A stretch of 64,000 nucleotides of DNA from Mariprofundus ferrinatatus (GTDB taxonomy: Bacteria; Pseudomonadota; Zetaproteobacteria; Mariprofundales; Mariprofundaceae), in assembly GCF_002795825.1 (NCBI RefSeq), contig NZ_CP018800.1, forward strand, positions 1,612,001 to 1,676,000, written 5' to 3'. The first letter of the stretch is position 1; every line of letters starts with the position of its first letter. This document shows, one piece after another, positions 6,552 through 8,572 of the stretch. The position numbers were made by a program, and so were the translations under genes. The notes beneath the pieces were generated by a model that was not told the DNA's origin, ran no database searches, and saw only the letters and a program-made list of their open reading frames with translations.

Positions 6552-6626
6552 CGCGGGGTGGAGCAGTGGTAGCTCGTCGGGCTCATAACCCGAAGGTCGT
6601 CGGTTCAAATCCGGCCCCCGCAACCA
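6552..6626 (+). tRNA. initiator tRNA-fMet (anticodon CAT)
   Basis: A 75-base tRNA whose arms are almost identical to the E. coli initiator tRNA. The anticodon CAT is at 6584-6586. Three initiator hallmarks are visible: three consecutive G:C pairs in the anticodon stem, an unpaired C1/A72 at the acceptor end, and an encoded 3' ACCA. The D-loop is two bases shorter than in E. coli. It is followed within ten bases by a terminator hairpin. Its 3' half is duplicated at 8501, marking it as a probable integration or recombination site. Confidence 0.97.
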
Positions 6627-6672
6627 AACATACAAAGGGCTCGCAGCTAATCACTGCGGGCCCTTTGTCTTT
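6601..6672 (+). repeat. direct repeat copy 1: tRNA-fMet 3' end plus terminator
   Basis: This 72-base stretch runs from the tRNA T-loop through the terminator. It matches 8501-8572 at a fixed offset of 1,900 bases, with 63 of 72 positions identical by hand count. Similarity collapses immediately upstream of 6601 and downstream of 6672. Confidence 0.9.
6634..6668 (+). terminator. tRNA-fMet terminator
   Basis: A hairpin with stem AAAGGGCTCGCAG pairing to CTGCGGGCCCTTT around a 7-base loop, followed by a T-rich stretch (GTCTTTCTT). It begins seven bases after the tRNA CCA. Confidence 0.85.
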
Positions 6673-6716
6673 CTTATCAACAAGCGCCCAGTCGATTGTA
6701 TTTAACGCATTACCAT

Positions 6717-7343
6717 TTACCGAGAAATTTCCAGCATAACTTCATTTCTTCGCAAAAAAGGGAGCGTCCAGGGTGGATTAAAAAAAGAGAATATTGGCTC
6801 AGACAACACAGCCATATTTTGCCTGCTTATAAAACCAGCAAGAAGTTCACTATGCTCTTTGATGCTTGATTGGCTTGCTGTTCCAGAAAACTGGATAACC
6901 GCAAAGCGTTTTCCAGGAAGTTCCCGCAACTTCACTTTATCATTATTCGGAATTGGCAATGTGGCCATAGTATAACTTGACGGCATCACAAATCGAATTT
7001 TCCATACACTGTTTTCAGCCATCTGCATGACTGGTGCGGTCATGGCTATTTTTCCACTGGGCTGCTGCATGACCGGCGCAGTCATCGCCACCTTATTAGA
7101 CTGTCTGTTATTGCCGAAAATATAATCGGCGATAACTTTGAACCCTTGGCCGATGGCATCTTTCCGTTCACCGGCCACTTCGGTTTCCGCCACAATCATC
7201 GGAGCATAATCCCTGATTTCGATCTCTCCGTACGTTTCAATCACAGTATACCTAGCTTGCTCGACATTACTCACAATAGGCCCCCAAAGCGCGAAAGAAA
7301 TCAACAGCAAAGCTGCTACTATCCAAATGATTCGTTTCTTCAT
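6717..7343 (-). CDS. SOUL family haem-binding protein
   Basis: A 208-residue protein of the SOUL/HBP family. A single N-terminal hydrophobic helix (about residues 5-23) suggests a membrane anchor or signal peptide. The SOUL domain then shows the family landmarks YTVIETYGEIEIRDYAPMIVAE and, twice, KVAMTAPV / KIAMTAPVM. It ends with the family's PPWTLPFLRRNEVML segment. Family members bind haem or tetrapyrroles, and the ligand here is inferred. ATG 7343 is preferred over the in-frame TTG at 7346. It lies 36 bases after the DUF523-DUF1722 gene, so the two are probably cotranscribed. The region is visibly richer in A+T than its surroundings and is bounded by the tRNA repeats. Confidence 0.9.
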   Translation of the reverse strand: MKKRIIWIVAALLLISFALWGPIVSNVEQARYTVIETYGEIEIRDYAPMIVAETEVAGERKDAIGQGFKVIADYIFGNNRQSNKVAMTAPVMQQPSGKIAMTAPVMQMAENSVWKIRFVMPSSYTMATLPIPNNDKVKLRELPGKRFAVIQFSGTASQSSIKEHSELLAGFISRQNMAVLSEPIFSFFNPPWTLPFLRRNEVMLEISR

Positions 7344-7379
7344 CAAAACCGCCAGTTGGATCTCACAAGGCGATATCCC

Positions 7380-8330
7380 TTAATGTCCAGAGTTTGAAAG
7401 ATCACACAACCCTCTCGGGTAAGGATCCAGAAAATATTGAGAGCCAAGGTACATGTGATCAAACCGAATAACGTACGATTTGAGAAGGTGCTGCAACGTC
7501 GCCAGAGTGATGCGGTCATCCCGATACTCCTCGATAGCATCAACAAACATTTTCTTTTCTTCCGATTTCAATTCATCAGAAATCCAGCCATATCCATGGT
7601 AAAGAGCGTTGATAATATTTTTTTGGCTAGGTTCCCTCTGCAATGCTTTCCGAAAGTTCTCAGCATATTTGTGCATGACTATTGATAACGACTCTTTATC
7701 CCCATTGCTTGCTATACGGCCGCACAGTCGCATATTCTCCTGATGATAACACATCAGCAGCAACTTATGCCTGGCGTGGAATTCAGTTAATGCCATTATT
7801 GAAGGTGCGGTAAGAAGTTCGCGCAACCGGGCCAGAGCATAGAGTCGCATCAGGAATGCTTCCCGAAGATGGAAATTTTTTAACCGCCCCTCATCTTCCA
7901 TTGCAATAAAAGGGAGCTTTTCCTTCACTGCATGAGCAACCAAGCCAACACCTTTTATCGCCGATGAACCTTTTTGGCTGCTGCAATATACCTTTACCAC
8001 TGATGGCCCACATGATGGTGACCTGCCCTTCATGATAAACCCATCCACATTGCTAAACTTAGGTAACTGCTCGCTAATATAGTCGCGCATGGCATCAGTC
8101 ACATCGTTACCTGTAGCTGGCTGTATCATTCTCACCTGCCCTTGTATTTGGACGAGCCGCACCGGCTGCCGTGGCGTTCCTAACCCTATATCTGCTTCAG
8201 GGCAGATCGTTGTCAGATCAACAAACGGCTTTATTCTGTTCACGAAATCATCCTGAATTGATTGAGCATTGTATCGGCAAGCTTCAAATCCCAGACAACG
8301 ACTAACTACTACTTTCGGCTTAATACCCAT
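7380..8330 (-). CDS. DUF523-DUF1722 (YbgA-like) protein
   Basis: A 316-residue two-domain protein. Residues 1 to about 150 are DUF523, with conserved cysteines in VSRCLGFEACRYN, the segment TICPEADIGLGTPRQPVRLV and the signature FIMKGRSPSCG. Residues about 190-305 are DUF1722, the part shared with E. coli YbgA (LLTAPSIMALTEFHARHKLLLMCY). Standalone ybgA in enterobacteria neighbours the photolyase gene, and DUF523-DUF1722 genes recur in light- or oxidative-stress-inducible sets; its chemistry is unknown. GGGGGA precedes ATG 8330. Together with the SOUL gene it forms the payload of the small segment between the two tRNA-derived repeats. Confidence 0.9.
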   Translation of the reverse strand: MGIKPKVVVSRCLGFEACRYNAQSIQDDFVNRIKPFVDLTTICPEADIGLGTPRQPVRLVQIQGQVRMIQPATGNDVTDAMRDYISEQLPKFSNVDGFIMKGRSPSCGPSVVKVYCSSQKGSSAIKGVGLVAHAVKEKLPFIAMEDEGRLKNFHLREAFLMRLYALARLRELLTAPSIMALTEFHARHKLLLMCYHQENMRLCGRIASNGDKESLSIVMHKYAENFRKALQREPSQKNIINALYHGYGWISDELKSEEKKMFVDAIEEYRDDRITLATLQHLLKSYVIRFDHMYLGSQYFLDPYPRGLCDLSNSGH

Positions 8331-8391
8331 ACTGACTATCCCCCTTTCAGTACTCTTATAATAGCACGTTCCAGCTTAGAATTCCCAAGCT

Positions 8392-8457
8392 TCACACGGC
8401 TCCAAAGCTGCCAACCAATTCACCCTGTCGGTTGATAAGGTATTTATGGAAATTCCA
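8392..8457 (-). pseudogene. glutathione peroxidase fragment
   Basis: Reading the minus strand from 8457 gives 21 residues, WNFHKYLINRQGELVGSFGA plus V, then TGA. This matches the WNF.K(F/Y)L..R.G.(V/L) segment near the C-terminus of glutathione peroxidases (BtuE/GPx family). In-frame sequence further upstream hits a stop after two codons, and nothing resembling the rest of the enzyme is present nearby. The final 10-20 residues seen in intact enzymes are also missing. This is a relic of a gene that once lay between the DUF523-DUF1722 gene and the second tRNA-derived repeat. Confidence 0.65.
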
Positions 8458-8500
8458 GCCTGAGAATCACCCTGCTAAAGCAACCACGTTCCAGTAAAAG

Positions 8501-8572
8501 CTGGTCAAAACCGGCTCCCGCAACCAAATAAATAAAGGGCTCGCAGCTGATCACTGCAGGCCCTTTGTCTTT
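8501..8572 (+). repeat. direct repeat copy 2: degenerate tRNA-fMet 3' end plus terminator
   Basis: This stretch copies the tRNA-fMet T-loop, acceptor 3' strand, CCA and terminator (63 of 72 positions match 6601-6672). The 5' half of the tRNA is absent, so it cannot fold into a tRNA. The terminator hairpin (8534-8566) is nearly intact, with one mismatch relative to copy 1. The nine differences show the duplication is not recent. Confidence 0.88.

What the first reader, a model, noticed from the sequence alone, without database searches (positions are those of the whole stretch)
6552..8572. Mini-island bounded by tRNA-fMet and a degenerate copy of its 3' end plus terminator
The 72 bases from the tRNA-fMet T-loop through its terminator (6601-6672) recur at 8501-8572, offset 1,900 bases, 63 of 72 identical by hand. 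Between them lie a SOUL gene, a DUF523-DUF1722 gene and a glutathione peroxidase fragment in visibly AT-richer DNA, with no integrase. Integration into tRNA 3' ends is established for many islands, but use of the initiator tRNA is less common and this island is very small. Alternatives: a decayed tandem tRNA gene, or a larger island reduced by deletion.
Basis: partly seen in the sequence, partly recalled or inferred. Interest (0 to 1): 0.72.

Follow-up and report, generated by a model that had tools for sequence, protein, structure and literature searches.

The report
Relic island at initiator tRNA gene
Next to this iron-oxidising bacterium's only initiator tRNA gene lies a two-gene leftover of mobile DNA, closed on its far side by the ruin of a second, interrupted copy of that tRNA gene; relatives show that the spot is a busy landing site for such DNA, which is a known kind of arrangement with a few unusual details.

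Summary
The repeat is real: 63/72 bases, 6601-6672 versus 8501-8572. The cargo (SOUL gene, RudS-type TudS-DUF1722 gene, about 24 codons of a glutathione peroxidase) is AT-richer (0.44-0.48 GC against about 0.55). The tRNA-fMet gene, the only one in this genome, is a landing site in this genus. Relatives carry 4-34 kb islands there with tyrosine integrases and displaced tRNA 3' halves. One relative (G011) has the same mini-island, with a 34 kb stack between it and its first tRNA-fMet gene. Two refinements. (1) The distal copy is the ruin of an interrupted tRNA-fMet copy: its left part matches a ~70-nt T-arm insertion, complete in a tandem tRNA array in G009. (2) Between this genome and G011 the cargo is far less diverged (fourfold-site identity 77%) than 46 flanking genes (mean 48%, sd 8%). 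It was therefore exchanged or acquired after the lineages split. No integrase remains and the distal copy lacks the anticodon-loop part where displaced copies begin, so it is probably immobile: a decayed, cis-mobilizable-element-like relic in a tRNA hot spot. Known kind, new member.

The parts
6552..6626 (+). tRNA-fMet (CAT), the only full copy in this genome; target of island integration in relatives
6632..6672 (+). intrinsic terminator of tRNA-fMet; its exact stem occurs in 41 genomes only at tRNA-fMet genes or tRNA-fMet-derived sites
6601..6672 (+). proximal copy of the direct repeat (T loop to terminator)
6717..7346 (-). SOUL heme-binding family gene (cargo)
   Evidence: 91% aa identity to G011, otherwise in the genus only a 43% homologue elsewhere in G013
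7380..8330 (-). TudS(DUF523)-DUF1722 fusion, RudS-type tRNA 4-thiouridine desulfidase homologue (cargo); three Cys of the iron-sulfur site conserved
   Evidence: RudS architecture PMC11417400
8395..8466 (-). remnant of the C-terminal end of a glutathione peroxidase gene; rest lost towards the distal repeat
8473..8529 (+). remnant of an interrupted tRNA-fMet copy: end of a ~70-nt T-arm insertion, then T-loop/acceptor/CCA end
8501..8572 (+). distal copy of the direct repeat (63/72 identical)
8532..8572 (+). distal copy of the tRNA-fMet terminator; stem retained with one mismatch
6730..8790 (.). tract of low divergence from G011 (90-97% nt identity for most of it, dipping at the distal repeat), ending left at the tRNA terminator and right inside the 3' part of the downstream cytochrome gene
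8625..9107 (-). cytochrome c'-like gene, right neighbour, shared only with G011 at this place

Best explanation
This is a relic of a genomic-island hot spot at the initiator tRNA gene. In this genus, tyrosine-integrase islands insert into tRNA-fMet at the anticodon loop. Each brings its own 3' half of the tRNA plus a terminator, and displaces the old 3' half and terminator to its far end. The chromosome also carried a further tRNA-fMet copy interrupted by a ~70-nt insertion in the T arm. Cargo DNA came to lie between the working tRNA and that interrupted copy. Loss of everything except SOUL, RudS and a scrap of glutathione peroxidase, plus trimming of the interrupted copy down to its last ~57 bases and terminator, gave the present 1.9 kb structure. 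The tract was later exchanged, or arrived separately, in the lineages of this genome and G011. Both cargo reading frames are intact, so they are probably kept for function: RudS by homology removes 4-thiouridine from tRNA (light or sulfur stress), SOUL binds heme. Shown: repeat, hot spot, integrases, interrupted copy in relatives, low-divergence tract, absence of an integrase. Inferred: order of events, the original element, immobility, cargo function.
For: Hot spot: partial tRNA-fMet copies beginning at the anticodon loop in G011, G012, G015, G020, G025 and others; Phage_integrase proteins beside the tRNA (G012, G024) or beside the displaced half (G011, and G020 at 61% identity). Changed terminators: G015 and G020 have a different terminator at the intact tRNA and the common type at the displaced half. 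Common stem found only at tRNA-fMet sites. Same mini-island in G011, there preceded by two tRNA-fMet genes, about 34 kb and an integrase. Interrupted tRNA copy: complete in the G009 tandem array, displaced half in G004 and G010, remnant in G003, G000 and G011; not dispersed elsewhere. Cargo fourfold-site identity to G011 159/207 (77%) against 46 flanking genes at mean 48%, sd 8%; sharp tract edges, peroxidase scrap about 90% identical. Low GC.
Against: No relative shows the same right flank without the mini-island, so its insertion as a unit is inferred. The distal copy lacks the anticodon-loop part that fresh displaced copies have. Low divergence in the tract extends about 200 bp past the distal repeat into the cytochrome gene (16/21 against 15/31 fourfold sites). 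That fits homologous exchange better than a second site-specific integration, though the site counts are small.
Confidence: 0.72

Rival explanations
1. The mini-island is a cis-mobilizable element in the strict sense: a decayed island with still working attachment sites that can be carried along when an integrase-bearing island inserts next to it, as the G011 stack suggests.
For: Layout in G011 (integrase island, attachment-like tRNA half, integrase-less mini-island, distal remnant) matches the published accretion structure (PMC5704250). Cargo exchanged after the split.
Against: In this genome the distal copy keeps only the T-loop-to-3'-end part of the tRNA, not the anticodon-loop region where displaced copies begin; in G011 even that tRNA part is deleted. 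The low-divergence tract runs past the repeat.
Confidence: 0.12
2. Plain tandem tRNA duplication with decay: no island of its own; the two genes were placed between the two tRNA copies by ordinary rearrangement or homologous recombination.
For: Tandem tRNA-fMet copies are common in the genus (G002, G003, G009, G012, G016, G019); the distal copy is homologous to the interrupted third copy of G009.
Against: The same interval holds integrase islands in several relatives, and in G004 and G010 the interrupted copy is cut at the anticodon loop next to island-type arm repeats. Foreign composition and rarity of the SOUL gene in the genus.
Confidence: 0.13
3. The repeat is a coincidence of a dispersed terminator sequence.
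For: A few weaker terminator-like matches occur elsewhere in G011 (2057110, 2061081) and behind slyD in G001.
Against: The exact stem is found five times in 41 genomes, all at tRNA-fMet-derived sites, and the copy here includes the tRNA 3' end with CCA.
Confidence: 0.02

Closest known systems
tRNA-site genomic islands (Islander-type; PMC4383910)
   Same: Island between a tRNA gene and a displaced 3' fragment, crossover at the anticodon loop, tyrosine integrases, tandem stacks (seen in relatives)
   Different: This member has no integrase, is 1.9 kb (below Islander's 2 kb limit), and its distal copy is an interrupted-tRNA remnant that includes the terminator
Cis-mobilizable elements formed by decay and accretion (CIMEs; PMC5704250)
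   Same: Lost integration genes, flanked by att-like copies, in G011 directly adjoining an integrase-bearing island
   Different: Distal site lacks the apparent crossover region; mobility untested; no conjugation genes were identified
Dehalococcoides ssrA islands (PMC3146451)
   Same: Multiple tandem islands at a single-copy essential RNA gene, some without integration modules and possibly fixed
   Different: Those use a serine recombinase and ssrA; here tyrosine recombinases and the initiator tRNA
RudS, TudS-DUF1722 tRNA 4-thiouridine desulfidase (PMC11417400)
   Same: Same two-domain fusion, three conserved Cys, catalytic Glu/Ser region present; homologues in three relatives next to a photolyase-like gene
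   Different: Here it is separated from any photolyase and lies beside a SOUL gene in the relic island

Membership tests
tRNA-site genomic island | intact tRNA gene plus displaced 3' fragment in the same orientation downstream | tested here: met
   fragment derived from an interrupted copy
tRNA-site genomic island | integrase gene inside the island | tested here: not met
   no integrase ORF or remnant; present in relatives' islands at the same tRNA
tRNA-site genomic island | relatives with an empty site | tested here: inconclusive
   G009 has the uninterrupted array in a different context; G001 has HAD-tRNA-slyD without an island; none shares the right flank of this window except G011
tRNA-site genomic island | foreign composition or patchy distribution of cargo | tested here: met
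   GC, SOUL only in G000 and G011 at this place, divergence outlier
cis-mobilizable element (CIME) | lost integration and transfer genes | tested here: met
cis-mobilizable element (CIME) | retained functional attL and attR | tested here: inconclusive
   proximal site intact; distal copy lacks the anticodon-loop segment; recombination not tested
cis-mobilizable element (CIME) | mobilised with an adjoining element | not testable with these tools
   only the tandem layout in G011 is seen
RudS | TudS fused to DUF1722 with three iron-sulfur Cys | tested here: met
   (invariant C12, C43 and C107 with the SPSCG motif); activity not tested

The most novel reading that the evidence does not exclude
The interrupted tRNA-fMet copy, kept with about 90% sequence identity in several species of a genus whose fourfold sites are near saturation between the two genomes compared, is a maintained decoy landing site: islands insert into it at its intact anticodon loop, as in G004 and G010, and repair it into a working tRNA, sparing the essential initiator tRNA. 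The mini-island in this window would be the scar of such a landing.
Probability: 0.08. Interest if true: 0.7.

Novelty: new member of a known kind. Interest (0 to 1): 0.36.

Why it matters
It documents the initiator tRNA gene as an island hot spot in what is most likely the genus Mariprofundus, with stacked, turning-over islands and at least two integrase types sharing one target. It also shows how the 3' half and terminator of an essential single-copy tRNA gene are exchanged repeatedly. The interrupted T-arm copy gives a marker for tracing the order of events. In one relic, the cargo is a tRNA-demodifying enzyme homologue. None of this changes the general picture of tRNA-site islands.

Tried and rejected
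Dispersed-terminator explanation: rejected, exact stem only at tRNA-fMet sites. Integrase remnant in or near the mini-island: none above chance. Viral origin: the G011 integrase had no relatives in viral contigs, SOUL only one weak distant hit, and the T-arm insertion none; the insertion is absent from plasmids and no Rfam family matched it apart from tRNA. A vertebrate-like or unusual RNA fold of the interrupted tRNA: not exceptional (z -1.8). Donor search: RudS homologues on plasmids are all under 60% identity, the top-ranked at about 40%, whereas homologues elsewhere in the genus are 64-71%, so a donor within the family is more likely. Search for the right flank in named genomes found only distant threonine dehydratases, hence no clean empty site. 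Pfam did not recognise the 24-residue peroxidase scrap.

Full report
Observation. The window carries one tRNA gene, tRNA-fMet at 6552-6626. The stretch 6601-6672 recurs at 8501-8572 with 63 of 72 bases identical and no homology beyond it; the next best 72-mer match in the window has 42 identities. In the whole 2,301,665-bp genome only these two places match, so this is the sole full initiator tRNA gene. Between the copies lie SOUL (6717-7346, minus) and a TudS-DUF1722 fusion (7380-8330, minus), plus a 24-codon scrap resembling the end of glutathione peroxidase (8395-8466). GC falls to 0.43-0.48. There is no integrase or recognisable integrase fragment.

Organism. The genome size here (2.30 Mb, one contig) and that of the closest informative relative G011 (2.54 Mb, one contig) equal those given for Mariprofundus ferrinatatus CP-8 and M. 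aestuarium CP-5 (PMC5513912).

The tRNA is a hot spot. Across relatives, partial tRNA-fMet copies starting at the anticodon loop lie kilobases downstream of the full gene: G015 28 kb, G020 12 kb, G012 11 kb, G011. Phage_integrase proteins sit directly behind the tRNA in G012 and G024 and beside the displaced half in G011 and G020, the latter two being 61% identical; a second integrase follows the displaced half in G020. In G015 and G020 the terminator at the intact tRNA differs from the common type, which is found at the displaced half. This is as expected if each island brings its own 3' half and terminator. The exact common stem was found five times in 41 genomes, every time at tRNA-fMet-derived sites.

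The same mini-island in a relative. G011 has SOUL (91% aa) and RudS (95% aa) in the same order with the same right neighbour (cytochrome c'-like, DUF2934, threonine dehydratase). Its proximal boundary is a displaced tRNA half with a different hairpin, an integrase gene, about 34 kb of further DNA including a type III restriction system, and two full tRNA-fMet genes. Downstream synteny from 16.7 kb onward holds in G001, G011 and G015. G001 and G015 have hyp and slyD genes in the place of the cytochrome block, so the whole interval is variable.

What the distal copy is. The bases left of the repeat (8473-8504) are homologous to the end of a ~70-nt insertion in the T arm of a tRNA-fMet copy. In G009 this interrupted copy stands complete as third member of a tandem array. 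In G004 and G010 only its part from the anticodon loop onward remains, next to island DNA (in G010 with arm-like repeats). G003, this genome and G011 keep only the end; in G011 the tRNA end itself is deleted. The element is at most single copy per genome and was found only with tRNA-fMet sequence, except for a 5' portion in G022. The repeat is thus the ruin of a second tRNA-fMet copy rather than a plain displaced 3' end of the present gene.

Timing. At fourfold-degenerate sites the cargo is 77% identical to G011 (159/207) while 46 flanking genes average 48% (sd 8%, maximum 74%). Nucleotide identity is 90-97% over most of the tract from about 6740 to about 8790, apart from the distal repeat and the gap beside it, and falls sharply at both ends. 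The left edge is the tRNA terminator; the right edge lies about 200 bp beyond the distal repeat, in the 3' part of the cytochrome gene (16/21 versus 15/31 fourfold sites). The cargo was therefore exchanged or acquired after the two lineages separated, most simply by homologous recombination through the flanks. Transfer with an island is possible.

Mechanism. Shown: a multi-island hot spot at an initiator tRNA, integrase-free cargo between the tRNA and an interrupted-tRNA remnant, and a low-divergence tract. Inferred: the cargo is what is left of a larger element after deletion; it is now immobile because the distal copy lacks the anticodon-loop segment; RudS and SOUL are retained for function. 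RudS enzymes remove 4-thiouridine from tRNA and are often in light-responsive operons with photolyase (PMC11417400). Homologues in three relatives (G004-type contexts L053, L056 and L057, L058 among those read) lie directly beside a photolyase-like gene (assignment by reading, not by HMM).

Comparison. The layout is that of tRNA-site islands (PMC4383910) and of decayed, stacked elements called CIMEs (PMC5704250); Dehalococcoides ssrA islands are a close parallel (PMC3146451). Membership as an active island fails on the integrase; membership as a CIME is open because site function is untested. Novelty: new member of a known kind. The interrupted tRNA copy is the least ordinary part.

Noticed in passing
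L168 (G009:C113:11800-12700); also L167, L169, L173, L175: A tRNA-fMet copy interrupted by a ~70-nt hairpin-rich insertion in the T arm, about 90% conserved between several species of the genus, at most once per genome.
   Followed up: partly
L032 4838-5899 and L035 about 14463-15527: Tyrosine recombinases 61% identical (G011, G020) located at the far end of tRNA-fMet islands, beside the displaced tRNA half, unlike the tRNA-adjacent integrases of G012 and G024: two integrase types share one target.
   Followed up: partly
L033 17700-18144 and 12075-12700: Repeated GGGACA motifs, possible integrase arm sites, at both ends of the 6 kb segment between the two tRNA-fMet genes of G011; similar motifs before the displaced copy in G010.
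   Followed up: no
L034 5702-5739: A terminator resembling that of tRNA-fMet stands behind slyD, the gene next to tRNA-fMet in G001.
   Followed up: no
window 8625-16737: Cytochrome c'-like, DUF2934, threonine dehydratase, a Glu/Leu dehydrogenase-like gene and following genes replace the hyp/slyD block found in G001 and G015; this may itself be an older acquisition.
   Followed up: partly
window 17567-17935: Small cytochrome-like gene with unusually high fourfold-site identity to G011 (45/61), the only flanking gene approaching the cargo.
   Followed up: no
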